Below, piece after piece: positions 45,324-63,044 of a stretch of 64,000 nt of DNA (positions are counted from its first letter, which is position 1; each line of letters opens with the position of its first letter). The stretch lies in assembly GCF_010682065.1 (NCBI RefSeq), contig NZ_JAAGWG010000023.1, positions 1-64,000 on the forward strand. Direction: 5' to 3'. The DNA is from Blastococcus saxobsidens (lineage in GTDB: Bacteria > Actinomycetota > Actinomycetes > Mycobacteriales > Geodermatophilaceae). The translations under genes and the position numbers were made by a program. The notes beneath the pieces were generated by a model, which was given only the letters and a program-made list of their open reading frames with translations, did not search any database and had not been told where the DNA came from.

Positions 45324-45433
45324 GAGCACCTCCGGGATGTCCGACCGAGGAGCCGAACCTAACCCGTTCCGCAACCGGACGGTCGCGCACCCAGTGATCA
45401 GGCGATGCCGGCGGCGCGACTCCGCGCCGCGGT

Positions 45434-45465: not shown

Positions 45466-45474
45466 CCGCTGCTG

Positions 45475-45479
45475 TCGTC
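45475..45479. other. Left 5-bp target-site duplication
   Basis: TCGTC immediately precedes the left terminal TGTGAC and is repeated exactly at 62149-62153 after the right terminus. Five-base duplications are standard for Tn7-like transposition. Confidence 0.9.
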
Positions 45480-45629
45480 TGTGACCCATCACGTTAGTTG
45501 GGCAAACCGCGATCTTCTGAACAGCGGCTTCGTCACTCGTGAGCAACGCGGTCGTCACTTCAGTTGGGCAAACCCCGGAAAGTTCGTCACTTCAGTTGGG
45601 CAAGGACGTTCGTCAGTTCAGTTGGGCAA
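45480..45629. repeat. Left transposon end with five repeats (putative TnsB sites)
   Basis: Copies of the consensus TCGTCACTTCAGTTGGGCAA lie at 45486-45505 (terminal, diverged), 45530-45546 (degenerate), 45552-45571, 45584-45603 and 45610-45629. Copies three to five are near-identical and spaced 12 and 6 bp apart. In Tn7 such arrays are TnsB-binding sites. Confidence 0.88.
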
Positions 45630-45681
45630 AGCGTGCCCGGACGGCGGCACGAAAGACCCTCGCTGCGCTCATCCAGGTCGG

Positions 45682-48042
45682 CTATGCCTGAACTTCGCGG
45701 ACAGCCTCGTAGGCCAGGGCCTCCAGATCGGCCCGGAGTGCCGCGAAGTCCTCCACCGGGCTGAGCGGCTCTTCTCGCAAGTTGTGTTCACTGCGGATGC
45801 GGCGGATGGCTGCGCGGAGGGTCTCGGCCTCGATGCCCGCAGTAGGGACCTTCTCGTCGATGTCTTCGAGGAGGGCCGCGACGTCGCGCTTCGAGGCGGT
45901 CTTGGGGTGGTCCTTCAGGAAGTTCTTCCGCAGCCGGTTCACGGTTTTGGAGGTGCGTTCGCGGTCGTTGCGTCGCATGGCGTCGCGCTGCGCCCGATCG
46001 ATACGGGCAAACAGCACCTCGAAGTTGCCCAGGACACGATCCCGTTCCTCTGCCGGTGTGTCCCCATGTGCAAGTACGTGGAGGACGGCGCGGGCAAACG
46101 CCACCTTGGCGAGCCGCAACTTGGTGGAGGCGCGTGCGCTGGCGTCCGTGGCCGCCTTCTGGGCGGCTTTGAACAACTTCTGCTCGGGACCGATGTCGAT
46201 CGTGGTGAGGTCCTGGTCGATGATGGCTGCGTCTCCTGGAGAGAGCACCTCGCAGGCCAGGTGCTTGATAGCGAGGATCGCGATCTCGCTGGTCAGGAGG
46301 TCTTCCATCTCCTGGACCGTCTTGGTGGAGAGGTCGAGCGCTGCGGGGTCGTCGTCCTGGCCGAGGGTGCCGACCTGAATGACGAGATCGTCGTCCACGA
46401 GTTGGGTCTCTCGGTAGCCGAGGTGCAACTCTGCGGCAATGCCGTCTGCTTCATCGTCGCTGTCGAGCAGAACAATGACTGCGGGGGTGTCGACGTCGCG
46501 GCCACGGGCCAGGTAGACCATGTAGGGAATGTGTTCGGCGCCTCCGGCCGGAACGAGGGACAACTCGTTGAGGTCGAGGCTGGCGCCGGTGCGGCCGAGG
46601 CGGCGGCAGAGGGAACTGATGCCCGCCAGGAGCACCTGGTCGGCCTGGCCTTCCAGCATCAGGTTGCAGTGCCCGATGAAGGTTGTCTCGGCGACGAATG
46701 CACCGAACGCGGAGCGGAGCGGCTCGTAGTGGTTGTGGGCGGCGTTGCCAACCACCCTGGTGCCTTCTTCGCCGTCACCCTTCTCCAGCACGCGGATGCG
46801 TTCGCCGTGGTTCTTGTCGATTAGGAACGGCGAGTGGGTCACGTAGACGACCTGCACGGGGCGCTTGTCGAGGTCGTCGGGGTTGGCGAAGGAACTGAAG
46901 ATTTTCAGCAGGTCCTGCTGGCCGAGGCTGGACAGGTAGGTATCCGGCTCGTCCATGAGCAGAACTTCCTGCGTGCTCTTGGGCTGGTGCGACAGGTACT
47001 GGACGAAGTAGGAGAGGAAGTAACTCATTCCGCCGCTGCGCTCGCTGAACGAGTAGTCGCTGCCGGTGCGATCACGGACGGTGAAGACGAGGTGGAAGTC
47101 CCGCAGGGTCAGGTAGAGCGAGAACTGGCTGTCCTGGGACCACCACTTGGGGAAGTTGAGTGCGTCGGCGAGTTGCCGGTTCATCCGGTCAACGATGCCG
47201 TTGGCGTACCCCTCGGACTGCTGGGCCGCGTCCCGCAACTCCTCGAACGCCGTCCGGTTGATCCCGGCTACATCGACGAGGAGTTTCTCGGCGAGTTCGA
47301 GGCGAGCCCGCAGGTGCTTGTCCTCGTCGCTCGGCTCGGTGGCGAACGCTTCGGCGATGGTCTTCTGCTTCGCCTGGTCGATGCTCGTCAAGGACTCGAA
47401 GAGGGACCAGTTCTTGCGGACGTTCTTCATCGCGCTGAGGTCATGCTTGCGCGACCTCGGCTGGTCGGTGTCCGGGGCGACGAGGTAGTCGAGGGAGACG
47501 CTGTCCGGCAGCGGGATGTCTGCGTCGATCTCGAAGTAGGTCGGCAGGGCGATCTTCTTGACGTCGGCTGGTCGGAGGGGCACGTCCACCCACTCGTCCG
47601 CCTTGAGCACATAGAGGACGGCGCGCTTCCCGAAGCGGAAGAGGTGGAAGGACGACACATGGGCGTCCTCGTCGAGTTTGGCCAAGGACCGGATCATCGT
47701 CGCGTCCTCGGGGCTGAGGTTGTCGAACTCTCCGCCGAACTCCGGCAGTGCCATCTCCTTGTTGACCGCGAAGAAGTCGGAGTAGCGACAGAAGTCGCGA
47801 CGGACGATGTTGTCGCCGGTCAGCAGGCACTTGATGGCGGAGAGCAGTTGACTCTTGCCCGACTCGTTCGCGCCGACGACGGTGGTGATGTCGCGTTCGA
47901 GGGAGACACGGACGAACGGGTAGAACAGTTGGTCCTCGCCGAGGACGTCCCAGGGATCGGCGACTGCGCGAGGGTCGCTCTTGCGCAGGTAGTCGTAGTT
48001 GAACGACCGGAAGAACCGGACGTAGAGGTTCTTGACGTTCAC
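45682..48042 (-). CDS. OLD-type ATPase/TOPRIM protein (putative defence nuclease)
   Basis: The 786-residue protein has an ABC-type ATPase head with Walker A GANESGKS (57-64), a signature-like SERSGGMS (333-340), Walker B LLMDE (361-365) and an H-loop VTHSP. A C-terminal TOPRIM domain follows with LEGQAD (E464) and LLDSDD (D527/D529), the layout of OLD-family nucleases, which cut DNA in phage defence. It is the third gene of a Mod-Res-OLD operon near the left transposon end, and may supply or regulate cleavage. A 162-bp spacer separates it from Res. Its role in this set is inferred. Confidence 0.82.
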   Translation of the reverse strand: MNVKNLYVRFFRSFNYDYLRKSDPRAVADPWDVLGEDQLFYPFVRVSLERDITTVVGANESGKSQLLSAIKCLLTGDNIVRRDFCRYSDFFAVNKEMALPEFGGEFDNLSPEDATMIRSLAKLDEDAHVSSFHLFRFGKRAVLYVLKADEWVDVPLRPADVKKIALPTYFEIDADIPLPDSVSLDYLVAPDTDQPRSRKHDLSAMKNVRKNWSLFESLTSIDQAKQKTIAEAFATEPSDEDKHLRARLELAEKLLVDVAGINRTAFEELRDAAQQSEGYANGIVDRMNRQLADALNFPKWWSQDSQFSLYLTLRDFHLVFTVRDRTGSDYSFSERSGGMSYFLSYFVQYLSHQPKSTQEVLLMDEPDTYLSSLGQQDLLKIFSSFANPDDLDKRPVQVVYVTHSPFLIDKNHGERIRVLEKGDGEEGTRVVGNAAHNHYEPLRSAFGAFVAETTFIGHCNLMLEGQADQVLLAGISSLCRRLGRTGASLDLNELSLVPAGGAEHIPYMVYLARGRDVDTPAVIVLLDSDDEADGIAAELHLGYRETQLVDDDLVIQVGTLGQDDDPAALDLSTKTVQEMEDLLTSEIAILAIKHLACEVLSPGDAAIIDQDLTTIDIGPEQKLFKAAQKAATDASARASTKLRLAKVAFARAVLHVLAHGDTPAEERDRVLGNFEVLFARIDRAQRDAMRRNDRERTSKTVNRLRKNFLKDHPKTASKRDVAALLEDIDEKVPTAGIEAETLRAAIRRIRSEHNLREEPLSPVEDFAALRADLEALAYEAVREVQA

Positions 48043-48204
48043 CGTAGGCCGCCCGACTCCCGGTGTTGCTCCACGAGGACGGCCAGCCGCGCGACTTCGA
48101 CCTGCTTCGACTTCACGTCTCGCACCGTACGGGGAAGGTGCGACAGACGGTGCGCTTAGTCATCACGCCGCTACCGCTGTCGCTACGTCCAGGGTGCAAG
48201 GGGA

Positions 48205-50802
48205 TCAGTAGTTGTCGCCGAGTTCGTCGAACAAGGCTTCGACCTGAGGCTTGGTCGTCGCCTTATCGAGTCGTTCTGCGATGCCGTTGCGGGTGAGGTC
48301 GAGAGACTGGAGCCGGTCATCCACCTTGATGACAGCGACCACGCGGCGGACTCGCTCGGGCTTCGTCTGCGCCCAGCGGGCGAGTCCGGCCCACTTGGGT
48401 CCGGTGTCGGCGGAGTTGTGCAGGTGTGGGTCGACGATGTCCAGGCTCAGGCCCTCGTCCTCGATCTGGTGGAAGAAGAGGAAGTCGGGGTGGAGGAGCC
48501 CTTCTTCGCCGCCGTGCTCGTAGGGGATGGAGAGCGCGTGCTTGCCACTGGAGGGGTTGCGGTACCAGCCGACGAGGGAGTCGAAGGTCAGTTCTTCTTC
48601 GAGGACGCCTTGTTCCCAGGTGGATCCGAGGGGTGCGGGGTAGTCCCCGGCGTTCGGGTGTCCGGCGGGCAGGGCGAAGGCATGCCTGGGGTAGGTCTTG
48701 ACCGGCACGAGGGTGTCCCCGGAGACCTTCTCGGTAGCCACCTTGACCGATTCGGGAACGTCCAGGTTGGCGGCGGCCATGCCGCCCTTGGTTGGCTCCC
48801 AGAGCGCCTTGAAGTCGGTCTGCACGGCCTGCGTGAAGCCCCGTTCGACGGCGGTCTTGTGGGTGCGCTTCCAGGCGTCGATCTGGGTAGCGGCTGCGGC
48901 CTCGACGGCGTCGATAACGCCGTCGAGGGTTGAGAGGGCGGCGACGCGGGCCATGGCGTCTTCGTCGTCGTATCCCTGGTTGTCGCAGAGGTCGCCGTAG
49001 TACCAGTCGGCCGTGGCGTCGGGCATGACTCGCCGGGCCTTGTTGTAGGCGTCGGCGAGGTCGCGCCGGGTGACGCGCCGACGCTGCGGCTCCGCCGAGC
49101 CAGCGTCGGCGGCAGCCTCTTCATCGTCGATGACGGTGAACGTGCCCCCGGCGATCGCCCGCTCGGTCATGAGGAGTTCGAGGTTGTCGGCCACTCGCTT
49201 GTCGACCGCGTGACGGTGGGCGTCGTCCTCGGTGCGGACTGCGGCGATCATGCGGGCCTTGACGGTGGCCGTGGGGGCGGCTTCCAACTCCTTCTCGGCC
49301 AGCAGATCGGCGAGGGCGATGAGTCGGGCGACGTTGGAGCGGTAGGCCCGCTTGGGACGGACGTAGGACGGGAGGGAGGCGAGAAGGTCGAACACGTCCT
49401 GGGGAACCGCCGGGTTGGCCGGGCAGACGACCGGGTTGATGACGACCTGTGGCGGGGCGACGGTCTCCCCGGCCAGGGCTTCGACGACCTTCTCCACGTT
49501 CTCGGGGTCGTAGTAGGGCAGGTACATGGTCACGTCGTTGAGTGACTCGTCGGTCTCGATCCGGCGGGCCAGCGGGGTGCGGACCATGCGGCCGATCAAC
49601 TGGGCGATGTTCGTGTAGTCGGCGGCGGCGCGGAGCGACAGCATGACTTCGGCGCGGGGGCAGTCCCAGCCGGTGGTGAGCGCGTCCTTGAAGAGGACAA
49701 CTCGGACGCGGTCGTCGTCGGTGATCGACTCCGGGGACACGTACCGGACCTGCCTGTCCCCGATGCGCAGCGTGCTGTGCTCGCCGAAGGAGTGCGCGAC
49801 TGCCTCGTTGGTCAGGATCGGCCAGTTGAGGGCGAGCGTGTCGAGAATGGCGGCGACCTTTGTGTCGGGAACTGCGGGCGGGACCTGGACGACCAGGATT
49901 GGTTCGACGAGGGAGTCGCCGGTGGCCTCGTAGTGGGCTCGCCAGGCAGCGTCGGAGGCCATGAGGTCCTGGACGGCCTGCTGAAGGAGGGTGTCTTCGG
50001 CGATCTGCGCTTCGCCGGGGTGCTTGACGAGGATGCGGTCCTTGAGCATGCCGGACTCGCGGACCGCGTTCGCGTCCACGCTGACCGGGGTGACGGTCCG
50101 CGTGCCCTGGGCCTCGCGAGCGCTCATCGACTCGTAGAAGCGCTCCGGCGTGGCCGAGATGCCGAGCACGAGCGGGGCCGGGGGCTGGTGCGTGCCGATC
50201 GGCGTCGTGCCGCCGTGCACGACGGTGTTGACGATGGTCTGCTTCGCCGCAGCCCCGTTCCCGGTGCCCCGGTGCGCCTCGTCCCGCACCACGAGCAGGT
50301 TGGCCCCGCGAGCCCGGACGGTGTTGGCGATGGTGTCCCACAGGCCATGCGTTCGGTGATCGTTCGCCATCACGTTGCCGTCCCGATCGGGCACGGCTGC
50401 GTGATAGGAGGTCGCTCCCCTGCCGAGTTGCTGGATGTGGCAGAAGTACACCTTGCCGGGGGCGAAGGTCCGTTCGTCGAACGTGTTGTCGATCGTGACC
50501 AGGTGGCCGTCGGTGAACCGGGAGGACGCGAGCAGCATCTTGTTGGCTGTCTGTGCGTTCAGCGCCGGGTCGTCGGTCAGCCACAGGACCGCGAGGTCGC
50601 GGTTGGCGTCGGTGTCCTCGGTCCCGAACATGAGCCCTTCGAGCACGGCGGTCGCGATGACCGTCTTGCCTGCGCCTGTCGGCGCGGTCAGCCCGATGGC
50701 GGACATTCGGCCACGGCCCTCGTAGGCGGCGGCGGCCTCGCGAAGTTCGGTGATGACGTCACTGGTCGCCTTCACCTGGTAGTCGGTCAGAGTGAACTTC
50801 AC
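48205..50802 (-). CDS. Type III restriction Res-like DEAD/DEAH helicase
   Basis: The 865-residue SF2 helicase/translocase begins KFTLTDYQVKATSDVITEL (Q-motif-like). It has Walker A TAPTGAGKT, DEAH in VVRDEAHRG, SAT in LGISATPERF and motif VI in IAQLIGRMVR. The C-terminal region has HPDFLFFHQIEDEGLSLDIVDPHLH where Res subunits have a PD-(D/E)xK nuclease; the PD is present but the E-x-K part reads D-I-V, so nuclease activity is doubtful. It lies 61 bp downstream of the Mod gene. It should translocate on DNA for restriction. Confidence 0.88.
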   Translation of the reverse strand: MKFTLTDYQVKATSDVITELREAAAAYEGRGRMSAIGLTAPTGAGKTVIATAVLEGLMFGTEDTDANRDLAVLWLTDDPALNAQTANKMLLASSRFTDGHLVTIDNTFDERTFAPGKVYFCHIQQLGRGATSYHAAVPDRDGNVMANDHRTHGLWDTIANTVRARGANLLVVRDEAHRGTGNGAAAKQTIVNTVVHGGTTPIGTHQPPAPLVLGISATPERFYESMSAREAQGTRTVTPVSVDANAVRESGMLKDRILVKHPGEAQIAEDTLLQQAVQDLMASDAAWRAHYEATGDSLVEPILVVQVPPAVPDTKVAAILDTLALNWPILTNEAVAHSFGEHSTLRIGDRQVRYVSPESITDDDRVRVVLFKDALTTGWDCPRAEVMLSLRAAADYTNIAQLIGRMVRTPLARRIETDESLNDVTMYLPYYDPENVEKVVEALAGETVAPPQVVINPVVCPANPAVPQDVFDLLASLPSYVRPKRAYRSNVARLIALADLLAEKELEAAPTATVKARMIAAVRTEDDAHRHAVDKRVADNLELLMTERAIAGGTFTVIDDEEAAADAGSAEPQRRRVTRRDLADAYNKARRVMPDATADWYYGDLCDNQGYDDEDAMARVAALSTLDGVIDAVEAAAATQIDAWKRTHKTAVERGFTQAVQTDFKALWEPTKGGMAAANLDVPESVKVATEKVSGDTLVPVKTYPRHAFALPAGHPNAGDYPAPLGSTWEQGVLEEELTFDSLVGWYRNPSSGKHALSIPYEHGGEEGLLHPDFLFFHQIEDEGLSLDIVDPHLHNSADTGPKWAGLARWAQTKPERVRRVVAVIKVDDRLQSLDLTRNGIAERLDKATTKPQVEALFDELGDNY

Positions 50803-50863
50803 AAGTCAGCCTCTCGGCGGTCGGCACGGATGGTGCGGCAGGGCAGTGATCTCTTCGGGCTCA

Positions 50864-52894
50864 TCACGCGCCGCCCTGAGTGTTGATCTCGAAGTTGGTC
50901 AGGTAGTCCTCGTAGAGCCGCTTGACCGGCACGCCCTGCGGGAGCCGGGACAGCGCTCGTTCGTAGGCGGTGTCGGAGTCGGTCACGACGAAGCACACCC
51001 GGATGTCGGTCCCGTCGAGAACGGCCTTGGTGACAGCCTCGGCGAACCGGACCGTGGCGTCGGTGTCGAAGAGAACCCCGTAGCGGCCGGTGAGCGCCCA
51101 ACCGGACTCGGTCGGCTCGCCAATGCGCTCGTCGGTGGCTCCGGCTTCCAGCCACAACAGAGGCGCGATCGCCGCGAACTCGCGTCCGCGCCGGACCGTG
51201 CCGGGGTCGAGGTAGTGCAGGTCGAAGAACTCGACGTTGGCGGACATCCCGTCGGAGTAGACCGAACCGTCCGGCCGCTTGCCGGTAACAACCGTGGAGA
51301 TACGCGGGCGGGTGACGTACTCGAACACGCCCCAGGCGTTCCAGTCGGGATCGCCGGGATGATGTCCCGCCTTCCGCAAAGCCTTCGCCTGCTTGGCTCC
51401 GACTTCGTTGTTGGTCACGAGGATCGAGCGGCGAGTGCCACCGTCCTCTGCGTTGAGCCGGAGGACCGCTTCCGTGGTGGTTCCCGAGCCGCCGAAGAAG
51501 TCCAGGATGACGGCATCGTCCGGTGCCGCGAGCGCAATCCAGCGCATCAGGACGTCAGGGTCCTTGGGATTCGGAAAACGCTTGGCCCCCAGGATCTCGG
51601 TCAACCGCGCACTTGAAGCGTTGCGGTCGCGAACGAAGACTGACTCGGGCACTTGGCTGTTCATTTCCTCCAGTCGAGAGATTCCGCCGACGCCCGATGT
51701 CTCGGTCGGACCGAAGTGAATCAAGCCACGCTCGACGAGGTCAGACATTGTCTCGCGCGAGTAACGCCATCCATTCGGTGGCATGGGGACGGGCTTGCGG
51801 GTGCGGGGGTGCAGCAGGTCGTACTGGAGGTTCGGTCGCGGGTTGGGGCTCGTGAGGTTGCCGTCGGTCCGAATGGGTCGCCCATCGGCGTCGAGTGAGA
51901 CGAACCGCGTGACGGCGTCAGATGCCACGCCTGTCTTCTTGAAGTCCTTGATCCAGGCGCGCCACCGCTTGGTGGCCTCGGCGTGGTCGCCATTCGTGGC
52001 CGCCCAAATCTCCGCCGCCTTGTCCAGCGCCTCGTCAACTCCGGGCTTTTTTTCCCGCCACTCGATCTCCGCCTGGGTCAGCGCTTCCTCGTTCTTCGCG
52101 TAGACAAGCATGTAGTCCGCGCCGTTAGAGACATAGCGCGAGTCGTTCTTTCGGCCGCCCTGCCAGACGATGTTGGAGATGAAGTTCTGCGGGTGAAACA
52201 CCTGGTCGAGGAGCATGCGGAGCCGGTGCTGCTCATCGTCTCCAATGGCGACGATGATGACCCCGGTCGGCTTCAGCAGATCCCGTGCGATGAGCAGGCG
52301 GCGTTCCATGAACGACAGCCACTTCGACGACCGAGTGCGGTCGTTGGCATCGACGTATCGGTCGTTGTAGATCCAGGAGTCGCTGCCGGTGTTGTAGGGC
52401 GGGTCGATGTAGATCAGATCGATCTTGCCGAGATGTGCAGACTTGAGAGCCTGAAGGACGTGGTAGTTCTCACCGTTGATGACGGTGTGCCAAGGCTGTC
52501 CGGGCGTCCGTTCGATGCGTTCCACAGAGCGCAGACCGGGATAGACCGGATCCCCGAAGGCGCGAACGACTACAAGGTCGCTGACCGGCCGTTCCGAGCC
52601 GTCGTCGAGGACCGCAACAGCGCGGACTGTGCTGGTGAAGCGTTCTACCGTCCAGGTGTCGGTCGAGGACTCGTCGCGCAGTGCGACCGTCACGCCCTTC
52701 CGGACGGGGTGATTCGAGAGGCGTGCCGCCTCGGGCATGTGGCGGTCGAAGAGCAGGCCGAACGTCCGCGATCCGCGCAGTTTCTCGACCTCGGACTCGA
52801 TCAGCCGACGCAGGGCCGGGTTGTCGATCCGATCGATGGCGTCGTCCAAGATCGGCTTTTGCCGGTTGGCAACCATGCTGCGGCGACTCCTCAT
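50864..52894 (-). CDS. Type III-like (beta class) DNA adenine methyltransferase
   Basis: The protein has DPPY at 164-167 (IYIDPPYNTGSD) before the SAM loop FFGGSGTT (466-473), the beta-class order used by type III Mod subunits. An insert between them (about 250-440) probably recognises the target. An extra N-terminal region of about 130 residues precedes the methylase domain. A second ATG 18 bp downstream, with GAGGAG upstream, is an alternative start. It should modify host DNA and heads the cargo operon with Res and OLD. The 247-bp upstream spacer (52895-53141) holds no visible gene. Confidence 0.9.
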   Translation of the reverse strand: MRSRRSMVANRQKPILDDAIDRIDNPALRRLIESEVEKLRGSRTFGLLFDRHMPEAARLSNHPVRKGVTVALRDESSTDTWTVERFTSTVRAVAVLDDGSERPVSDLVVVRAFGDPVYPGLRSVERIERTPGQPWHTVINGENYHVLQALKSAHLGKIDLIYIDPPYNTGSDSWIYNDRYVDANDRTRSSKWLSFMERRLLIARDLLKPTGVIIVAIGDDEQHRLRMLLDQVFHPQNFISNIVWQGGRKNDSRYVSNGADYMLVYAKNEEALTQAEIEWREKKPGVDEALDKAAEIWAATNGDHAEATKRWRAWIKDFKKTGVASDAVTRFVSLDADGRPIRTDGNLTSPNPRPNLQYDLLHPRTRKPVPMPPNGWRYSRETMSDLVERGLIHFGPTETSGVGGISRLEEMNSQVPESVFVRDRNASSARLTEILGAKRFPNPKDPDVLMRWIALAAPDDAVILDFFGGSGTTTEAVLRLNAEDGGTRRSILVTNNEVGAKQAKALRKAGHHPGDPDWNAWGVFEYVTRPRISTVVTGKRPDGSVYSDGMSANVEFFDLHYLDPGTVRRGREFAAIAPLLWLEAGATDERIGEPTESGWALTGRYGVLFDTDATVRFAEAVTKAVLDGTDIRVCFVVTDSDTAYERALSRLPQGVPVKRLYEDYLTNFEINTQGGA

Positions 52895-53141
52895 CGACCT
52901 TGCCCACTACCTACCGTGCCTGTATCGGCACGATGAGACGGTAACTGCGACGTCCGACACGGCGGGTTCAGCAAGCGGAGTCAGGGCTGCTCGGCCAGTC
53001 CAGCGGTGGCGCGAGCCGGGCAGCACACCGGGCGCACCGCGCTACAACATCAACCAGCAGGCCAGAGAGCGTCGCGTCGCGCCAAGGACGTACCTGACTC
53101 GAAGTTCGGGCCGCAACAGCGTCTACGAGGTAGCGCTGACC

Positions 53142-53696
53142 TCAGGCGCCGGAGGAGAGGTCCGAACGGCTGCTTTGCCGCCGTTCCCTCTCGGACACAC
53201 GCTGTTGGCTGGACACCGGACGCAGGCCGTAGTCCACGGCGAGGCTCAGGTCCTTCGCGACGAGCATGAGGTCGTCGATCCAACTGCCGACCGGCGGAGG
53301 CTTCATGCTGTTGAACTCAGCCGTGGCTCGCCCGAGCGCGGTCAGCAGGCGATCGGTCCTGGTGACTAGGACATCGACAAGTTCGGCGGGAACGCCGACG
53401 AGTGGCGGGCGGTCCTGAGCGCGCCGGGCCTGCTGCTTCTGGGTGTTCCGCTCGGTCCGGTGCGGTAGGCAGAACGCGGCCTTGGGGTGGTCGGAGATGG
53501 TGGTGTCGCAGCAGCGGCACCAGTTGGTGCCGTCAGGGGCTCGGCGGCCTCGCACATCGCCGGTGGGGAACCGGAGGGGCACGTCCTCCATCGAGATCGG
53601 ACCCTCGGTGGGTCGCGACGCTGGGTTCGAGACCTGGTCGAGCGTGAGCCCTTCTGGCTGCTGCACCGGGGTCTCCTTGGCATTCGTGACTGTCAT
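53142..53696 (-). CDS. Small protein with Cys/His cluster, possible DNA-binding
   Basis: From the ATG giving MTVTNAKETPVQQPEG the product has 184 residues. Residues about 60-90 contain WCRCCDTTISDHPKAAFCLPHRTERNTQKQ, a C-x2-C...C-x2-H arrangement that could hold zinc, followed by a basic stretch. A helical part follows (VPAELVDVLVTRTDRLLTALGRATAEF). I know no family for it. The start sits in a cluster of palindromic motifs and the gene is divergent from tnsA, so it could regulate the transposition genes, but that is inference. The longer frame upstream is probably not coding. Confidence 0.6.
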   Translation of the reverse strand: MTVTNAKETPVQQPEGLTLDQVSNPASRPTEGPISMEDVPLRFPTGDVRGRRAPDGTNWCRCCDTTISDHPKAAFCLPHRTERNTQKQQARRAQDRPPLVGVPAELVDVLVTRTDRLLTALGRATAEFNSMKPPPVGSWIDDLMLVAKDLSLAVDYGLRPVSSQQRVSERERRQSSRSDLSSGA

Positions 53697-53836
53697 AGGT
53701 GCATTCGTGACAGTCACGAATGCGGCGCTCGATCGCGCGGACGGAACGGTCAACAGTGCTCTGACCTGCTCGTTTACATGTCGAGTGGTCGGGCGCTTGA
53801 CGCAGCGTATGCGCACAGTCGTGTCATTCGTGACAG
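53681..53836. promoter_or_regulatory. Cluster of CATTCGTGAC palindromes between divergent genes
   Basis: The 379-bp spacer 53697-54075 holds no gene I can support. In and beside it the word CATTCGTGAC occurs at 53681-53690, 53702-53711 and 53825-53834. At 53701-53723 it forms a perfect palindrome, arms GCATTCGTGAC and GTCACGAATGC around one A. At 53823-53836 TGTCA-TTCG-TGACA is another small palindrome. One copy covers the start of the zinc-finger-like gene; a TTGACC box (53748-53753, minus strand) lies just upstream. These look like operators for a dimeric repressor. Confidence 0.6.
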
Positions 53837-54075
53837 CCGCGCCCGCTGGACCGTCCGGATTTCGCCACCGTGGAAGCGTCGAGCCGACCCACGGCTCTTG
53901 GAGCCCGGAGGTCCGGATGACCAGCACGACCCCCTGCGCCAGGCCCTCGCCTGGTGGTGCGCCTGCCTCGGGGGCGTTCGCCTGCCCGGCGCTGACGCCG
54001 GTGGATCTTGTCGGCCTCACGACCTACTGTCCCGCCCATCGTTCGAACAGGCGTTCGAACAGGGAGGAGCGCGTC

Positions 54076-54936
54076 GTGTCGTCCACAAGCATTCGGCTGC
54101 TACCGCCGGTGCTCCGGTACCGGTCACCTGCTGCACCGCCGCTGTGGTCAGCGGATGCGACCTGGCGCGACCTGACCGCCCAGCGCCCGGTGAAGGCCAT
54201 GGCCGATCCGGACCGGGGCTGGACTTCGCGCTGGACCGTGACGTACCGGCACGGCCAGACCGAGAGCACGGAGACCGTCACCGACGTGTCCCCCGGAGAC
54301 CTGCTGTCGTCCGACCCCATCCGTACCAACACCTGGCACGCCCGCACGATGACCCGCTCCGGGCTGCACTTCCTTGCTTCCACCGGTGAGTTGCAGGCAC
54401 ATGAGTCACTGTTCGAGCGGGACCTGCTGGTCGTGCTGGACTTCGACGCGGTCACCGCCGTCGCCAGTCAACCGTTCACGCTCAGTTGGCACGACGGCGA
54501 GCGGCAGCGGAAGCACACCCCCGACTTCATGATCGTCGCCGACGGTGTGCCGACCGTGGCGAACTGCCGCCCCTCGGCCCTGGTCAACGATGCGCTGCTG
54601 GAAAACTGCGCCGCGATCGCAGCGATCTGCGTGGCTCGCGGCTGGGGCCACGCGCTCGTCACCGACTATCCCCGGCCGCCGTTCACCGTGCTGTCCACCA
54701 TCGCCGCCACCCGCAACTGCGACGACCCCTACGGCTACGGCGAGGACATCCTGGAGCGGCTGGCCAGCGACGGCCCGACACCCTTCGCTCGGCTGGCCGA
54801 CACGTTCCCGGCTCCAGCGTTCGCCCGCGCGATCCTCCAGCGGCTGATCTGGGACCGCGAAGTCACCGTGGACCTGTCCCGGCTCCTCGCCGACGACACG
54901 CTCGTCGCGCTGCCCGGTCAGGAGTCAACGCGATGA
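54076..54936 (+). CDS. tnsA: TnsA-like heteromeric transposase endonuclease subunit
   Basis: TnsA makes the 5'-strand cuts at Tn7 ends, letting the element excise. The 286-residue protein has the family region ELQAHESLFERDLLVVLDFD (E110/E114), HTPDF (D150) and VPTVANCRPS. Active TnsA has D-x-(9-20)-(E/D/Q)xK; here the last motif reads N163-C-R165, so the third catalytic pair looks altered. The GTG start has GGAGG 7 bp upstream. The stop overlaps the tnsB start (ATGA). Confidence 0.85.
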   Translation: MSSTSIRLLPPVLRYRSPAAPPLWSADATWRDLTAQRPVKAMADPDRGWTSRWTVTYRHGQTESTETVTDVSPGDLLSSDPIRTNTWHARTMTRSGLHFLASTGELQAHESLFERDLLVVLDFDAVTAVASQPFTLSWHDGERQRKHTPDFMIVADGVPTVANCRPSALVNDALLENCAAIAAICVARGWGHALVTDYPRPPFTVLSTIAATRNCDDPYGYGEDILERLASDGPTPFARLADTFPAPAFARAILQRLIWDREVTVDLSRLLADDTLVALPGQESTR

Positions 54937-57179
54937 CCACGATCCGTCCGATCCCCGGCGTACGCCTGGCACTGGCAGGGGTCCAGCACACCGTCCTCGG
55001 CTACGACACCGCCGAGGGTGCGGTGCGGCTGGCCGATGAGAACGGCGTCCTCGTCACCCTCGGCGTCGAGGACTTCGTCACCCACCCGGACCTGCACGAC
55101 CCGGCTGGTGCTCGCGCGCACAACGCGGCGGCCGAGCGCCTGTCCACGACCGATCGGCGGCTGCTGGAAGCCCGCATCGAGCACGTCCGGGAAGCAGAGA
55201 CCGGATACCGGTCCGGTGATCCGCACCGGCCCGCTCCGGGTGAGCCTCGTCCGCAGTACAACCCGGAGACCACGACGCTGACCGCGCGGCGGCGGACGAA
55301 GGCCGCCGAACTGAACAACGATCTCGCGCGGGCAGCCGGACTGGACATGTCCTACACGACGATCCGTCGGATCAGCGCCGCCCTGAATACGGGAATGGGC
55401 CTGGACGGCGTCGTGGATTGCCGCCTGGTTCGCCGGTCACACGGTCGGCACTCCATCGACAAGCGCGTCGAAGAAGCCTGCTGGATCGTCTTCGAGGAGA
55501 CCCGCCAGGGCTCCAACGTGTCCATGAAGACCCGCATGAACAAAATCAAGCAGTGGATGCTCGAACACCACGGCAAGGGCGCCGACGCGCTCGTGCCGTC
55601 GGCCTCCACTATCGAGCGCTGGTTCAAGGACCGGTTCATCCCCAGCGACCTGTCCGGCAAGGCCCGCACCCGGCGCAGCGCCACCACGGCGCCCGCGCAC
55701 GGTTTCCGGCGGCCGAACCCGACTCGTCCCGGCGAACTCGTCCTCATGGACACCAACAACCTGGACGTGCTGCTGGCGGGCACCAACCTGGCGGGGGTCA
55801 TCCGGGGAAGCCTGGTCCTCGGCATCGACTGGTACTCGCGGTCGGTCGTCGAAGTCCGGGTCGTGGAGAACGCCGAGAAGGCCATCGACATCACCTTCGC
55901 GCTGCGTGACTTGGCTCGCCCCATGCAGATGCGCGCGGGATGGCCTGACGATGCCCGCTGGCCGTTCGTCGGCGTCCCCGAAGAACTGATCACCGAGATC
56001 CACGGCGGCGAAATCGCCGGGCTCCCCTTCGTCAACACTGAAGCGGTGGTGGTCGACCACGGCTCCACCTACAAGTCCCACATCAGCGTCGCCGCCGCCC
56101 GCCAGCAGGGCATCAGCGTGCTTCCCGCCCGTGTCCGCATGGGCTCGGACAAAGCCATCGTGGAACGGTTCTTCGGCTCCCTGAGGTCCATGCTGCTGGA
56201 GCACCTGCGGGGCTATCGGGGCAGCGACTCCTCCGAACGCGGCGCGAACGTCGATGGCACGGTCGTGTGGTCGGCGCAGCAGTTGGAAGACGAGATCGCC
56301 CTGTGGGCGGTCCGGATCTGGCAGAACCACGCGATGTCCGAGGTCAAGCCGCCGTGGTGCCCGGAAGGTGACTGGTCACCCAACACCCTGTACCAGCACG
56401 GCCTGTCCACCTCGGGGCTTCCGCCGCGCGTGATGTCCAGCGACGACTACTACGGTCTGCTTCCGACCATGGCCGTGAAGGTCCACGGCCGGGGCGTGAA
56501 GATCCGGCAACTCTGGTACGACCACGAAGTCCTCGGCCCGCACCGGAACCTGCCGTCCCCGTACGGCGGTGCCGCCAAGGGCAAGTGGACCGTCCGGTAC
56601 GACCCGCGCGACATGCGGCAGGTCTACTTCCTCGACGAGGACGGCCAGTACCAGGTGATCCCGTGGACCGGTGCGACCGGTCCGATGCCGTGCTTCACCG
56701 ACCGGCACGTCACCGCGCTCAACCGCATCCGCCGCGAGAGCGGGATGCGTCCCCGGCACGACAGCGAACTGGTCGAAATCCTCATCCAGGACGTGCTGAC
56801 GGTGCACGAGCCCAGCAGCACCTGGCAGACGGTGCCCAAGAAGGTCCTCAACGATCGGTCACGGACCCAGCGCAACTGGGAGATGGCCCGTCGTGACCGG
56901 GAAGCCGTCGACCTTCCCGCTGACGACGACCACCCCGTGGAGGCAGAAGGCCAGGAAGAGGCCGCGACCGACGCCGAGTTGAGCCGTCCCGGCTCCGGTC
57001 TGAGTTCCAAGCCACCGGCGACCGTCACCGCCATCGGCACCGCTGCGGTCGCCGACGCACGGGCTCGCAAACGGCAGAACGCCACCGTCGGCACGGTCGT
57101 CCCAGCAGCGCGGCTGGGTGCCAAGCGCGGTAGCACGTACGGCGACCTCGCGGCCCTGACCGACGAGGAGCCGACGTGA
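54933..57179 (+). CDS. tnsB: TnsB-like DDE transposase (Mu/rve family)
   Basis: TnsB binds the end repeats and joins the 3' ends to target DNA. The 748-residue protein has N-terminal helix-turn-helix segments (about 120-250), an rve core with catalytic D273 (VLMDTNNLDV), D375 (VVVDHGSTYKS) and E411 (KAIVERFFGS), D-35-E spacing, and a Mu transposase C-terminal beta-barrel. The last 100 residues are hydrophilic and likely contact TnsC. Its start is coupled to tnsA. Confidence 0.93.
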   Translation: MTTIRPIPGVRLALAGVQHTVLGYDTAEGAVRLADENGVLVTLGVEDFVTHPDLHDPAGARAHNAAAERLSTTDRRLLEARIEHVREAETGYRSGDPHRPAPGEPRPQYNPETTTLTARRRTKAAELNNDLARAAGLDMSYTTIRRISAALNTGMGLDGVVDCRLVRRSHGRHSIDKRVEEACWIVFEETRQGSNVSMKTRMNKIKQWMLEHHGKGADALVPSASTIERWFKDRFIPSDLSGKARTRRSATTAPAHGFRRPNPTRPGELVLMDTNNLDVLLAGTNLAGVIRGSLVLGIDWYSRSVVEVRVVENAEKAIDITFALRDLARPMQMRAGWPDDARWPFVGVPEELITEIHGGEIAGLPFVNTEAVVVDHGSTYKSHISVAAARQQGISVLPARVRMGSDKAIVERFFGSLRSMLLEHLRGYRGSDSSERGANVDGTVVWSAQQLEDEIALWAVRIWQNHAMSEVKPPWCPEGDWSPNTLYQHGLSTSGLPPRVMSSDDYYGLLPTMAVKVHGRGVKIRQLWYDHEVLGPHRNLPSPYGGAAKGKWTVRYDPRDMRQVYFLDEDGQYQVIPWTGATGPMPCFTDRHVTALNRIRRESGMRPRHDSELVEILIQDVLTVHEPSSTWQTVPKKVLNDRSRTQRNWEMARRDREAVDLPADDDHPVEAEGQEEAATDAELSRPGSGLSSKPPATVTAIGTAAVADARARKRQNATVGTVVPAARLGAKRGSTYGDLAALTDEEPT

Positions 57180-57206
57180 CCTCGCCACGCGGTCCAGCCC
57201 TTCCAT

Positions 57207-57239
57207 GGCTGTAGGCGAAGCCCCTTCGCATCCGCAGCC
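57207..57239 (+). other. Hairpin between tnsB and tnsC
   Basis: GCGAAG/CTTCGC forms a stem with CCC loop, enclosed by GGCTG/CAGCC. It fills much of the 87-bp tnsB-tnsC gap, the only real gap in the tns operon. It could be a partial terminator that lowers tnsC/tniQ expression. Confidence 0.4.
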
Positions 57240-57266
57240 GTGCTCTTCCCCTCACGCATCCCAGAA

Positions 57267-58478
57267 ATGGATAACGCCATGATCGAAGACCTGCCGAAGA
57301 ACTGGTTCCGTCAGCCCCCCGACCTCAACCAGGTCCAGGACGCGGACGGCTGGGCCACCTACGTCGCCCGCCGGGACGACTACCAGATGCCGCCGCTGCT
57401 CACCCGCTCCGCGTATGAGGGCCTGGCTTCGCGTCAGCGGGCGCTCTACAACCTTGCCCGGAAGGTCGCGGTGAGCAACCTGCCCAAGCCGGACACGCCG
57501 ATGGCGGCGGCCATCCGCGAGCAGATTGAAACCACGCTCAGCACCAACACGCTGAACGCTGATCCCGGTGTCCGGCCGGGCCTGTTCATCTCCGCCGAGG
57601 GTGGCCTCGGCAAGTCCACGCTGATGCGCGAGGTCGCGGCCTCGTTCGACGAGGAGACCCGGCAGATGGCCGACATCTTCCCCGGCATGTTCGGCAACCT
57701 CGACAGGTGGATCCCGGTCATCTGGATCAACGTTCCACCGAAGGTCAGCATCGGTGCGCTCTGCCGCAAGATCCTCAACTTCTACGGAGAAGTGCCCCGT
57801 GGCATCCGCACCGAGGCCCAGTTGACCGACCGCGTCCACACACTCATCCGGGACTGCGGAACCAGGTTGGTCGTTCTCGATGACATCACCCGCGTGAAGA
57901 TGCACCGGGAAGCCGACCAGGACGCCGCCGACTGGATCCGTGGCCTCCAGGAAACCAGCGCAACCGTCATCGGCATCGGAGTCGACGTCGAAGGATGCGG
58001 TCTGCTCTACGAAGGGCGGGCAGGGACGAAGCAGAAGCGGCTGCTGACCCAGACCCGGCGCCGGTTCAGCGTCCTCAACCTCGACCCGTTCACCTACGAC
58101 TCCGCCGAAGAGATCACCGAATGGGTGGCGCACCTCGCGGCCGTCGAACAGGACCTGCCGCTACTCGACAAGACCCCTGGGATGCTTAGCGAGGATCTGC
58201 CGGAGTTCCTGTTCGCCCAGACCGGCGGAGTAATCGGCTCATTGAGCCGCTACATCGCTGAGGCTTCCAACGCCGTTCTTGGTCGGTCTGTCGCCGACGG
58301 GGGTGAGCACCTCACGCGCGACGACTTCCTGAAGGTCCAGTTGGATCACGCCGCCGTCAGCGGCAGCAGCCCCGAGATCGACGCGGCCACAAGCATCGGC
58401 AAGAAGGCCGCGTCGAGCAGGAAGAAGCAACGCAACGGCTCCTTCAACGGTGACCGCCAGCGGCGGGTCCCGGCATGA
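57267..58478 (+). CDS. tnsC: TnsC/TniB-like AAA+ ATPase, target-choice regulator
   Basis: TnsC forms ATP-dependent filaments on target DNA and links the TniQ target selector to TnsAB. The 403-residue protein has Walker A EGGLGKST (111-118), Walker B RLVVLDD (D205/D206), an arginine-rich sensor region and a basic C-terminal tail (KKAASSRKKQRNG). The start is uncertain among three nearby in-frame codons (GTG 57240, ATG 57267, ATG 57279), none with a strong ribosome site. Its stop overlaps tniQ (ATGA). Confidence 0.92.
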   Translation: MDNAMIEDLPKNWFRQPPDLNQVQDADGWATYVARRDDYQMPPLLTRSAYEGLASRQRALYNLARKVAVSNLPKPDTPMAAAIREQIETTLSTNTLNADPGVRPGLFISAEGGLGKSTLMREVAASFDEETRQMADIFPGMFGNLDRWIPVIWINVPPKVSIGALCRKILNFYGEVPRGIRTEAQLTDRVHTLIRDCGTRLVVLDDITRVKMHREADQDAADWIRGLQETSATVIGIGVDVEGCGLLYEGRAGTKQKRLLTQTRRRFSVLNLDPFTYDSAEEITEWVAHLAAVEQDLPLLDKTPGMLSEDLPEFLFAQTGGVIGSLSRYIAEASNAVLGRSVADGGEHLTRDDFLKVQLDHAAVSGSSPEIDAATSIGKKAASSRKKQRNGSFNGDRQRRVPA

Positions 58479-60325
58479 GCCTTCCTCGACGGCTTCCACG
58501 CAGCCTCGCCGCACACCCCGACGAGTCCCTCGCCGGGTACCTGCTGAACCTGTGCCACCGGCTCGGCATGACTCCCAACGAACTCGCTGTCCGCACGGGA
58601 CTCGAATCGAAGACGCGCAACGAGATCGACACCGGGTACGCCGTCACCCTCCCTGACGGACCTCAGGAAGCGTTCGCGACCGCGACCGGGCTGGCCCTCG
58701 ACGAGGTCACCCGCCTCACCCTCGGTCGCTATGACGGGCACCTCTTCGACTCGACCGCCCCAGCGCGGGCCGCCCGGACCGTGCACGGCGCCCTCTGGGT
58801 AGCGCCACCGCTAACCCGCTACTGCCCGCAGTGCCTCGCCGACACCCCCGACGAGAACCCCGACCGCACCACCTGGGCCGTCTCTTGGCAGACACCCTGG
58901 GCGGTCGCCTGCACCCGCCATGCAGTCCTGCTCCCGCACGCCTGTCCGGCCTGCAACACCTCAGTCGGCAACTCCGGCGTGCGCGGGGTGACCCTCATTC
59001 CCCGCGTCAGCCAGCCGGTGGCCCACCCCGCCGCCTGCCGCGCGACCGTCGGCTCGGCTCAGACGCTCTGTGGCGCCCGCTTGGACCACGCTGAAGCCCT
59101 CGACGCGCCCCCGCCCGTCTTGGCGCTCCAGGAGCGGCTCAACGCCATTCTCGATGGCCGCGCAGAGAACCTGACCTCGCTCGGCGTGCCCGTCAGCGCC
59201 GACCAGTACCTACGGGACCTCCGCGTCCTGGCCGTTCTGCTGCAACTGGCCAACGAGCCCAGCGTCCTGGCCATGCTGCCCCGCACTCTGACCGATCCGG
59301 CCGTGGACTACCTCGCCGAGCGCCACGCGCGACGCTTGCACCGCAGCAAGCGCGACCGCAGCGACCGCACCTGGACTCATCCGCCCGTCGACAGCCGCGT
59401 CACCGCCACCCTGCTGGTCACCGCCGCCCGGCTCCTCGACGAGGACTCCCCGTCCGACCAACTCCACGGTCTCGTCGCCTCAACCATCCGCAACGAACGC
59501 CTGCTGTGGGCGCGCATCCGTTCTACGAGCGAACCGTCAGTCGGGCTCGGTCGCTACTTCCAGCCGGGACGCACTGGCGTCACCACTACGGCTCGACTTC
59601 GCAGCGCCGCCGCCGACCGCACCTACCGCATCACCAGTGACCACTTGCCCGCCTTTCTCGACGACGCCACCTACCGTCGGGTCTTCCCGATGATCACGCC
59701 GACCAACGAACGCAACGTCCGTCGCGCGGTGCCCATCGCGATCACTCGGCTGATCACTCGATGCAGCCTGGAAGAAGCGGCCGATCTCCTCGGCTATCCG
59801 CACTACAGCGCCGAAGCCGCCGTTGTCCGCACCGGACGCGCCCTCGGCAACGGTCGCCGCACCGACTGGTTCCACGACACAGTCGCCGACCTCGCCAACG
59901 CGCTCGACAGCCACCACCCGGTCAACCACGGGCACCGCCGCCGCCACTTCACCGGCGACTGGACGATCCCCGAAGAGGACTGGCACGGCCTCCAGCAGGC
60001 GCTCCTCGGTGCCAGGCTGGCCCGCAAAGACACGCCCTGGGCGGAGCGGCGTCCCGCCTACGACGCCTGGATCTGGAGCCTGGTGACCGGCGGCGACCCC
60101 GCCGTAGCCCCGATGGTGCGGACCCAGTCCGACAGCGGACGCACCTGCACCGGCGGTGTCATGGCCGTCCTCAGCACCCTCACTCGCCGCTGCACCGACG
60201 AGCACGTCTCGATCGTGGCCGAGTACGCCGCCCGGCTGACCGCACTCATCGACAGCAGCGCTGACCTCGCCAACCCGTCCGACGGGCAGCCGTCCTTGGA
60301 GCCTTCACGTTCGAACGCTGCCTGA
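58475..60325 (+). CDS. tniQ: TniQ/TnsD-like target-site selector
   Basis: TniQ/TnsD proteins recognise the insertion site and recruit TnsC. The 616-residue protein begins PRRLPRSLAAHPDESLAGYLLNLCHRLGM, and has a TniQ zinc finger with CPQC (117-120), C146-x2-H149 and CPAC (157-160). A long C-terminal region follows with helix-turn-helix-like stretches (SLEEAADLLGYPHYSAEAAVVRTG). Its length is nearer TnsD (sequence-specific) than to the short TniQ of CRISPR-linked elements. It very probably recognises the 3' end of the sigma gene where this element lies. Confidence 0.92.
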   Translation: MSLPRRLPRSLAAHPDESLAGYLLNLCHRLGMTPNELAVRTGLESKTRNEIDTGYAVTLPDGPQEAFATATGLALDEVTRLTLGRYDGHLFDSTAPARAARTVHGALWVAPPLTRYCPQCLADTPDENPDRTTWAVSWQTPWAVACTRHAVLLPHACPACNTSVGNSGVRGVTLIPRVSQPVAHPAACRATVGSAQTLCGARLDHAEALDAPPPVLALQERLNAILDGRAENLTSLGVPVSADQYLRDLRVLAVLLQLANEPSVLAMLPRTLTDPAVDYLAERHARRLHRSKRDRSDRTWTHPPVDSRVTATLLVTAARLLDEDSPSDQLHGLVASTIRNERLLWARIRSTSEPSVGLGRYFQPGRTGVTTTARLRSAAADRTYRITSDHLPAFLDDATYRRVFPMITPTNERNVRRAVPIAITRLITRCSLEEAADLLGYPHYSAEAAVVRTGRALGNGRRTDWFHDTVADLANALDSHHPVNHGHRRRHFTGDWTIPEEDWHGLQQALLGARLARKDTPWAERRPAYDAWIWSLVTGGDPAVAPMVRTQSDSGRTCTGGVMAVLSTLTRRCTDEHVSIVAEYAARLTALIDSSADLANPSDGQPSLEPSRSNAA

Positions 60326-60375
60326 AGCCTGACGGTCACCTGAACGTCGGCTCGCTGGGCCAGGAACCGGCAGGG

Positions 60376-61524: not shown

Positions 61525-61527
61525 GGT

Positions 61528-61821
61528 TTACCTGTCCCCGCAGAACAGGACGACGACACCCTGTCGCCGCCACTCCGGCATGTTCGAGGACAGCGCCTCT
61601 TCAATCTCGCGGCTCAGGCGGTCACCACCGATCTTCCACAGGCAGCCGCACTCTTCGCACAGGATGTCGCCGGAACCGTCCTTACGCACGCCACCGTGGT
61701 TGTCGTGATCGCAACGAAGGAACTCCGGCACCCCGCGTCGTGCCGGGACGCAGATGCTGATGGACGATCGACATCGTCGGCACTCCAACCGTGCCTTGAC
61801 CGCGTCCGACCTGCCTGCCAT
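61528..61821 (-). CDS. Small zinc-ribbon protein
   Basis: The 97-residue protein has CRRC (residues 14-17), a CDH, and CEECG, plausible zinc ligands, with a hydrophobic C terminus RRQGVVVLFCGDR. The ATG has AGGAGG 5 bp upstream, so expression looks real. It is the first gene of a pair with the DUF4062 gene, and its promoter must lie in the right transposon end. No function is recognised. Confidence 0.7.
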   Translation of the reverse strand: MAGRSDAVKARLECRRCRSSISICVPARRGVPEFLRCDHDNHGGVRKDGSGDILCEECGCLWKIGGDRLSREIEEALSSNMPEWRRQGVVVLFCGDR

Positions 61822-61916
61822 GCCGCCTCCTCACCGAACGGGACCTGGTAGGGACGCACGGTAGGGCGAGAGACTGACACTTCCTGGTGCTCGGCGAGCA
61901 CCGAGGAACAAGTATC

Positions 61917-62148: not shown

Positions 62149-62153
62149 TCGTC
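62149..62153. other. Right 5-bp target-site duplication
   Basis: TCGTC follows the right terminus ...GTCACA and matches 45475-45479. Bases 62152-62153 belong to the sigma gene's TGA stop codon, which stays intact. Confidence 0.9.
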
Positions 62154-62952: not shown

Positions 62953-63044
62953 GTCGCGCTCCTCGGTCGTGCTGCGGGTTCCCCGTCCGTGGTCCCGCGT
63001 GGTCATGACTGTCACTCGCCCGGATCGCCGCCCGGCCGCCCGCC

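What the first reader, a model, noticed from the sequence alone, without database searches (positions are those of the whole stretch)
45682..52894. Three-gene defence cargo: Mod + Res-like helicase + OLD/TOPRIM ATPase
A beta-class methylase and a Res-like helicase form a type III-like pair. The helicase's nuclease motif is atypical (HPDF...LDIVDPH, no E-x-K), whereas the third gene has an OLD/TOPRIM nuclease layout. Cleavage may therefore have moved to a separate subunit, a restriction architecture I do not recognise as a named system.
Basis: partly seen in the sequence, partly recalled or inferred. Interest (0 to 1): 0.72.

Follow-up and report, generated by a model that had tools for sequence, protein, structure and literature searches.

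The report
Transposon carrying two separate phage defences
A Tn7-like jumping element in an actinobacterium carries a restriction-modification pair that appears to keep its own DNA-cutting site, plus an OLD-type defence nuclease beside it; the three genes look like two separable modules rather than one new three-part system.

Summary
The three genes are real and correctly placed. They lie inside a Tn7-like transposon (45480-62148, 5-bp target duplication TCGTC) inserted at the stop codon of the sigma-factor gene whiG. (1) mod adjoins res in 71 of 80 homologous loci; no OLD orthologue was found by blastp in the 80. (2) 12 of 12 other OLD-family loci showed no Mod or Res match in the DNA held. 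A sister element at the same whiG site in another species carries a CBASS-like set instead. (3) The odd Res motif is a family trait, not decay: in 57 C-terminal domains D773, H793, D799 and K803 are invariant and position 791 is D or E, and the predicted domain has PD-(D/E)XK-like topology, with weak fold matches. Best reading: a type III-like pair that cuts with its own Res, using a lysine moved to the next helix, plus an independent OLD nuclease, shipped together. Left open: OLD relatives lie near R-M genes of other types in 6 of 12 loci, so a guard or accessory role is possible. No activity was tested.

The parts
45480..62148 (.). Tn7-like transposon, 16,669 bp, holding the three cargo genes
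   Evidence: Tips TGTGACCC... and ...GAGTCACA, with arrays of 20-bp repeats in inverted orientation at the two ends. The repeat pattern has 7 matches in the held genome (91% complete), 7 of 7 at these two ends. An empty site is seen in same-genus genome G409.
45475..45479 (.). Target-site duplication TCGTC, left copy
62149..62153 (.). Target-site duplication TCGTC, right copy, overlapping the whiG stop codon
45486..45629 (+). Left-end array of 20-bp TnsB-like repeats (45486, 45552, 45584, 45610)
   Evidence: (up to 5 mismatches allowed)
61917..62142 (-). Right-end array of 20-bp TnsB-like repeats (61917, 61948, 61978, 62007, 62074, 62103 weak, 62123)
45682..48042 (-). OLD-like gene: ABC-type ATPase plus TOPRIM, 786 aa
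48205..50802 (-). res: SF2 helicase with C-terminal variant PD-(D/E)XK-like nuclease domain, 865 aa
50864..52894 (-). mod: beta-class amino-methyltransferase, 676 aa
53142..54020 (-). Small unknown gene divergent from tnsA (true start uncertain), 75.6% identical over 156 aa to an ORF in the sister element
   Evidence: no Pfam match
54103..54936 (+). tnsA (start uncertain)
   Evidence: NCBIfam NF033179 115.5 bits, cut-off 110; Pfam match below its cut-off
54837..57179 (+). tnsB transposase (start uncertain)
   Evidence: Pfam Mu-transpos_C 1.6e-07; PADLOC TnsB 2.2e-06
57240..58478 (+). tnsC-like ATPase
   Evidence: Pfam TniB 5.1e-08
58475..60325 (+). tniQ/tnsD-like target selector, 616 aa
   Evidence: Pfam TniQ 1.4e-20
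60376..61524 (-). DUF4062 gene, further cargo
   Evidence: Pfam 2.9e-20
62152..63015 (-). whiG sigma factor; its 3' end is the insertion site
   Evidence: NCBIfam NF004935 383.8 bits, cut-off 343

Best explanation
The locus is a Tn7-like transposon that inserted at the 3' end of whiG and carries two separable defence modules. Module 1 is a type III-like restriction-modification pair. Mod methylates a short host motif and recognises it in incoming DNA; Res is the ATP-driven motor and, with its own C-terminal domain, the nuclease. The Res active site is a variant PD-(D/E)XK site: D773 and D/E791 bind metal, and the usual lysine two residues on has been replaced by a lysine in the next helix (K803), with conserved H793 and D799. 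Module 2 is an OLD-family ATPase-nuclease that works on its own. Shown: gene content, transposon ends, separability of the modules, conservation of the Res site. Inferred: catalysis by Res, the migrated-lysine role of K803, solo action of OLD, and targeting of whiG by TniQ.
For: Mod lies next to Res in 71 of 80 loci (7 of the other 9 have under 700 bp of DNA before res). OLD orthologue in 0 of 80 (blastp E <= 1e-3, ORFs of 100 aa or more); 68 of 80 hold at least 2.5 kb after res. The closest pairs, 46-48% identical in Res, in Nocardia, Mycolicibacterium and Rhodococcus genomes and 3 fetched plasmids at 45-47% also lack it. 12 of 12 other OLD-family loci show no Mod or Res by blastp. The Res site is invariant in 57 of 57 domains, the window and 56 of the 80 loci, picked by hand. 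In the wider alignment of 86 rows (one duplicate, L020=L045; 4 rows gapped there) D773 is kept in 82 of 82, H793 in 82, D/E791 in 81, D799 in 81 and K803 in 80. Predicted domain: mean pLDDT 91.4, strands and helices in PD-(D/E)XK order; the nine best second-look rows are TnsA, Hjc and RecU, Z 6.0-6.7. N-terminal part: SF2 dsDNA translocases, e.g. RadD 8h5y_A Z 15.4, 313 residues, 4.3 A. Sister element at the same whiG site with CBASS-like cargo. R-M (947 elements) and OLD (338) are reported as the two most frequent defence cargoes among 6,549 Tn7-like transposons (PMC8649781, start of abstract and passages), so carrying both needs no functional link.
Against: The three genes run in one direction with gaps of 61 and 162 bp, and no terminator-like site was found between res and OLD in a crude scan, so co-transcription is possible. 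OLD relatives lie near R-M genes of other types in 6 of 12 loci. One of 80 Res loci, L061, has a distant OLD-like ATPase 407 bp after res (HMM E 1.5e-17; AAA_15, weak DUF2813). Fold matches of the Res C-terminal domain are weak by Foldseek (best E 0.015) and under Z 8; tRNA splicing endonucleases and unrelated chains also appear lower in the list, and the tool warns that Z under 8 may mean only a common arrangement. Two of 82 rows deviate: L035 has R for K803; L093 has R791, N799 and A803. No activity was measured.
Confidence: 0.73

Rival explanations
1. One reading: Mod recognises, Res moves, and OLD is the cleavage subunit of one three-gene restriction system.
For: Same orientation, short gaps; intact TOPRIM residues; canonical (D/E)-X-K absent from Res.
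Against: 0 of 80 homologous Mod-Res loci show an OLD orthologue by blastp (one distant ATPase by HMM) and 0 of 12 other OLD loci show Mod or Res; the Res site is invariant in 57 of 57 domains, 56 of them from loci without an OLD orthologue.
Confidence: 0.06
2. OLD is a loose accessory or guard of R-M systems of several types: it acts when the neighbouring R-M system is blocked or as a second line, in the manner recalled for PrrC/RloC beside type I systems, without being a subunit.
For: 6 of 12 OLD loci have an R-M-type gene within about 4 kb: type I genes on a Deinococcus plasmid, 1.0 kb; HsdR-like 0.3 kb and 2.5 kb away, MTase_II 0.3 kb away and, in another locus, 4.0 kb away with a GmrSD_N gene next to OLD; Eco57I-type methylase 0.7 kb away. 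The window adds a type III-like pair.
Against: No R-M gene seen in the other 6 of 12 (their neighbours were only partly scanned, and L206 holds under 1 kb on one side). No control rate was computed, and defence genes cluster anyway. Orientation and distance vary.
Confidence: 0.14
3. The Res C-terminal site is catalytically dead and the Mod-Res pair silences or blocks DNA without cutting it.
For: No (D/E)-X-K; histidine at the lysine position. Fold matches are weak.
Against: D773, H793, D799 and K803 are invariant and 791 is D or E in 57 of 57 domains, unlikely for a dead site. Lysine migration is documented in the PD-(D/E)XK superfamily (PMC1189080, passages).
Confidence: 0.07

Closest known systems
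Type III restriction-modification (EcoP1I, EcoP15I)
   Same: mod then res in tandem, beta-class Mod, SF2 motor and C-terminal nuclease-like domain in one Res chain
   Different: Res is far from the PADLOC type III models (best 39 bits over residues 365-439); the site is (P)D...(D/E)PH...D...K instead of (P)D...(D/E)XK
Type III m4C systems with a third ATPase gene (PMC8259958, abstract and passages)
   Same: a third ATP-binding protein beside mod and res
   Different: there it is an SF2 helicase-like gene 5' of mod, and Res has canonical PD-(D/E)XK; here it is an OLD ATPase-TOPRIM gene 3' of res and not conserved with the pair
CglI / NgoAVII three-gene R-M (PMC4267653, start of abstract and passages)
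   Same: methylase plus helicase plus a further gene
   Different: there a PLD nuclease subunit and a C5-methyltransferase; here an amino-methyltransferase and an OLD gene
Class 1 OLD nucleases (T. scotoductus OLD, P2 Old; PMC10568477, passages)
   Same: ABC ATPase plus TOPRIM in one chain; no UvrD or reverse transcriptase among the genes named in this element
   Different: 786 aa against 528 aa for the 6p74 chain; sits beside other defence genes, while class 1 is described as not found near them
Tn7-like transposons with defence cargo (PMC8649781, start of abstract and passages)
   Same: TnsA, TnsB, TnsC, TniQ, terminal repeat arrays, 5-bp duplication, defence cargo
   Different: insertion at the 3' end of whiG; no paper in the held library holds both 'Tn7-like' and 'whiG'

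Membership tests
Type III restriction-modification | Beta-class amino-methyltransferase Mod, motif IV before motif I | tested here: met
   DPPY then FGGSG in the translation; PADLOC MTase_III 353 bits
Type III restriction-modification | mod directly upstream of res as a conserved pair | tested here: met
   71 of 80 loci; 7 of the rest have under 700 bp upstream, L083 is reversed, L097 about 0.85 kb apart
Type III restriction-modification | SF2 motor in Res | tested here: met
   ResIII; DEAH in 86 of 86 rows and GxGKT in 84 of 84 ungapped rows; SF2 fold matches
Type III restriction-modification | C-terminal domain of PD-(D/E)XK fold in Res | tested here: inconclusive
   topology and top-ranked rows agree, but Z at most 6.7 and Foldseek E at least 0.015; the EcoP15I nuclease domain is disordered in its structure (PMC4490356, passages), so it could not serve as yardstick
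Type III restriction-modification | Canonical (D/E)-X-K half-motif | tested here: not met
   D/E-P-H in its place; candidate migrated lysine K803
Type III restriction-modification | ATP-dependent cutting that needs two inversely oriented sites | not testable with these tools
   biochemistry needed; feature as given in PMC3874151 (passages)
OLD family, class 1 | N-terminal ABC ATPase and C-terminal TOPRIM with conserved acidic residues | tested here: met
   ATPase by Pfam and PADLOC; TOPRIM by PADLOC Old match 352-513, 6p74 match 361-512 and conserved E464, D468, D527, D529
OLD family, class 1 | No UvrD-like (class 2, Gabija) or reverse transcriptase (class 3) partner | tested here: met
   none among the 8 element and 1 flanking proteins scanned; small ORFs not all scanned; not tested systematically in the relatives
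OLD family, class 1 | Single gene not near other defence genes | tested here: not met
   beside mod-res in the window; R-M genes near 6 of 12 relatives
Tn7-like transposon | TnsA, TnsB, TnsC and TniQ/TnsD genes | tested here: met
Tn7-like transposon | Inverted arrays of TnsB-like sites and a 5-bp target duplication | tested here: met
CglI/NgoAVII-type three-gene R-M | PLD nuclease subunit and C5-methyltransferase | tested here: not met
   no PLD family among the matches of the three proteins; the methylase is N6_N4_Mtase

The most novel reading that the evidence does not exclude
This roughly 790-aa OLD subfamily is a general second-line effector of restriction-modification systems: it recurs beside type I, II and, here, type III-like systems without being a subunit of any, and would fire when the R-M system is blocked by the phage.
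Probability: 0.14. Interest if true: 0.65.

Novelty: new variant of a known kind. Interest (0 to 1): 0.36.

Why it matters
It removes a tempting but unsupported new restriction architecture and replaces it with two testable points. First, a large family of Res proteins, found in many bacterial phyla and in two assemblies labelled archaeal (L054, L090), and named only as DEAD/DEAH helicases in 28 of the 30 plasmid rows listed out of 74 records, carries a conserved non-canonical nuclease site. Second, Tn7-like elements in one actinobacterial genus share one insertion point at whiG while their cargo differs, which makes target choice by their TniQ proteins directly testable.

Tried and rejected
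Three-gene system: tested by gene co-occurrence from both sides and rejected as a conserved unit. An HMM of six OLD proteins found one distant ATPase after res, L061:12807-14279 (E 1.5e-17). It is a 490-aa AAA_15 protein with a weak match to DUF2813 over its first 59 residues and no TOPRIM seen by eye, so I do not count it as an orthologue.

Trio outside the transposon: considered because in Tn7 tnsA lies next to one end (recalled) and here mod-res-OLD lie beyond tnsA; rejected once the tips and the duplication were found beyond OLD and beyond DUF4062.

Viral contigs: no OLD relative. Phage records: 4 with a Res match; none covers 80%, two cover 70-73% at 34% identity, one of these with a methyltransferase annotated under the match (not followed up). 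PDB by sequence: the Res profile found only a Clp ATPase fragment; EcoP15I was not among the rows shown in the structure searches. Absence there proves nothing.

Promoters or terminators between res and OLD: none by a sigma-70 and terminator scan of 47900-48400, which is weak for high-GC actinobacteria.

Control rate for R-M genes near OLD: not computed. Many of the short matches to A4 (query 43-76, E near 1e-4) look like P-loop matches in other ATPases and were not counted.

Literature: 'Tn7-like' with 'whiG', 0 papers; 'Tn7', 'whiG' and 'transposon', 1 paper, with one occurrence of each, seen as listing only; 'type III restriction' with 'OLD nuclease', 0 papers. PMC10293859 on Tn7 target selectors, passages only, holds no 'actinobacteria'. 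These cover only the held open-licence library.

Full report
The observation. The three ORFs exist as described on the minus strand: mod 50864-52894, res 48205-50802, OLD-like 45682-48042. Mod is a beta-class amino-methyltransferase with strong type III similarity. Res has the ResIII motor but only weak, partial matches to PADLOC type III models. The third gene matches AAA_21, AAA_15, PADLOC Old and, weakly, the OLD structure 6p74 (E 0.0039). E464, D468, D527, D529, E580 and D581 are invariant in ten OLD-family proteins.

The setting. The trio is transposon cargo. tnsA, tnsB, tnsC and a tniQ/tnsD-like gene run rightward from about 54.1 to 60.3 kb. The element ends at 45480 and 62148, is 16,669 bp long and is flanked by TCGTC on both sides; 20-bp repeats stand in inverted arrays at the two ends, and the repeat pattern has 7 matches in the held genome, 7 of 7 at these ends. 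The right duplication overlaps the stop codon of whiG, named by NCBIfam above its cut-off.

Same site, other cargo. whiG DNA matches of 87% identity or more were found in 17 of 17 other same-genus genomes among the 30 searched. In 3 of these 17 (G398, G399, G408) an element tip of the same kind abuts whiG. G399 and G408 were the only 2 of 59 other relatives with a TniQ match; G398 had none, so its element may be incomplete, unassembled or different. In G409 the left flank of the window (45398-45474, 94.8% identical) joins a single TCGTC and then whiG, an empty site. G399 and G408 carry TnsA, TnsB, TnsC and TniQ 49-55% identical to those of the window, and the G408 element has its own duplication, TGACC, at the whiG stop. 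G408 shows no OLD, Res or Mod match. It has a TIR-SAVED protein, a weak SMODS match (0.00041, below cut-off) and a ThiF protein, so a CBASS-like set. The far end of the G399 element lies beyond its contig, and the G398 contig ends 685 bp from whiG. Targeting of whiG by TniQ is inferred.

Mod-Res without OLD. A profile of six Res proteins gave 80 loci, the best kept of 307 relatives, from genomes of many phyla, two labelled as archaea. mod lies within 350 bp upstream of res on the same strand in 71 of 80; 7 of the other 9 have under 700 bp before res, L083 has the order reversed and L097 has mod about 0.85 kb away. OLD was not found by blastp in any of the 80; 68 of 80 hold at least 2.5 kb after res, so for 12 the test is weaker. 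Four further unnamed loci (L015-L018) and three plasmid loci (L182-L184) show none either. An OLD-family HMM found one distant ATPase after res, in L061. The gene after res varies from locus to locus.

OLD without Mod-Res. Twelve other loci of the OLD family were examined: a paralogue in the same genome (L116, 41% identical), L117, L118, L119, L120, L202, L203, L204 with L207 (one gene apparently split between two contig ends), L205, L206, L253 (the profile match counts one TAG, but an open 786-aa ORF covers it) and L254. In 12 of 12 blastp finds no Mod or Res. Most hold 7-10 kb on both sides; L206 holds under 1 kb on one side and L204 has only a 4-kb contig. L119 and L254 are similar plasmid loci. 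Six of twelve have an R-M-type gene nearby: L118 (Eco57I-type methylase, 0.7 kb), L120 (type I genes, 1.0 kb), L202 (MTase_II, 0.3 kb), L203 (HsdR-like, 2.5 kb), L204 (HsdR-like, 0.3 kb) and L205 (MTase_II, 4.0 kb, with a GmrSD_N gene next to OLD). In the other six none was seen, but their neighbours were only partly scanned. Without a control rate this is a lead, not a result.

The Res nuclease site. But the odd motif is the rule of a whole family. In 57 C-terminal domains (the window and 56 of the 80 loci, picked by hand for an intact C-terminus and spread) the invariant columns are H707, E730, W746, R748, Y761, D773, P792, H793, D799 and K803, and position 791 is D in 44 and E in 13. In the wider alignment of 86 rows, one of them a duplicate and four gapped there, D773 is kept in 82 of 82, H793 in 82, D/E791 in 81, D799 in 81 and K803 in 80. 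The deviating rows are L035 (R803) and L093 (R791, N799, A803). In the predicted domain (mean pLDDT 91.4; domain number is full-length number minus 599) D773 immediately precedes strand 175-181, D791 lies at the end of strand 185-193, and K803 lies in helix 201-214. The nine best second-look rows are TnsA, Hjc and RecU, PD-(D/E)XK nucleases, at Z 6.0-6.7 with 102-128 residues and 3.3-4.3 A; tRNA splicing endonucleases and some unrelated chains follow. Foldseek alone gives E of 0.015 at best. Lysine migration to another region is described for this superfamily, for COG4636 among others (PMC1189080, passages). I therefore infer a working nuclease with D773, D/E791 and K803, helped by H793 and D799. 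The full-length model (pLDDT 85.1) matches SF2 dsDNA translocases over residues 1 to about 450.

How it most likely works. Mod marks host DNA and recognises unmarked motifs; Res hydrolyses ATP on DNA and cuts with its own C-terminal domain, as in EcoP15I, whose nuclease domain follows a helical spacer and is disordered in the crystal (PMC4490356, passages). OLD acts separately as an ATPase-nuclease. All these activities are inferred. Whether Mod makes m6A or m4C cannot be read from DPPY (PMC8259958, passages).

Chance of company. Among 6,549 Tn7-like transposons, R-M (947) and OLD (338) are reported as the two most frequent defence cargoes; that paper adds that OLD is typically there with UvrD, as Gabija (PMC8649781, start of abstract and passages), which is not the case here. 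If the two were independent, some 50 elements would carry both (my arithmetic), so the trio needs no shared function. Base composition sets the whole element apart from the host (GC3 0.82-0.89 against 0.94-0.97) but does not separate OLD from res.

Verdict. A new variant of known kinds: a Tn7-like element at whiG with a type III-like pair of non-canonical nuclease site, plus an OLD nuclease. Because the canonical half-motif was tested and not met, I call the pair type III-like and not a type III member.

Noticed in passing
window 62149-62154; G408, G399, G398 loci L162, L169, L155: The 3' end of whiG looks like a shared attachment site for Tn7-like elements in this genus: element tips abut it in 3 of 17 other same-genus genomes.
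   Followed up: partly
G408 C20:400028-404263 (L150:2128-6363): The sister element at the same site carries a CBASS-like set (TIR-SAVED, weak SMODS, ThiF) in place of mod-res-OLD.
   Followed up: partly
window 53142-54020 (-) and G408 C20:397090-397605: A small gene with no Pfam match, divergent from tnsA, is 75.6% identical over 156 aa between the two elements, while their Tns proteins are only about 50-55% identical.
   Followed up: no
G000 C54:154282-156621 (L116): The same genome holds a second OLD of this family, 41% identical, with no Mod-Res beside it.
   Followed up: partly
L040, L050, L087 (mod); L065 and L182 (res): mod or res is split into two ORFs in these loci, which may be frameshifts, sequencing errors or phase variation.
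   Followed up: no
L083:10001-14900: Gene order is reversed, res before mod.
   Followed up: no
phage records MT836112 and PV036457: Two phage records from human gut samples match Res over 70-73% at 34% identity, one with a methyltransferase annotated under the match.
   Followed up: no
window 60376-61524 (-): A DUF4062 gene is further cargo near the right end of the element.
   Followed up: no
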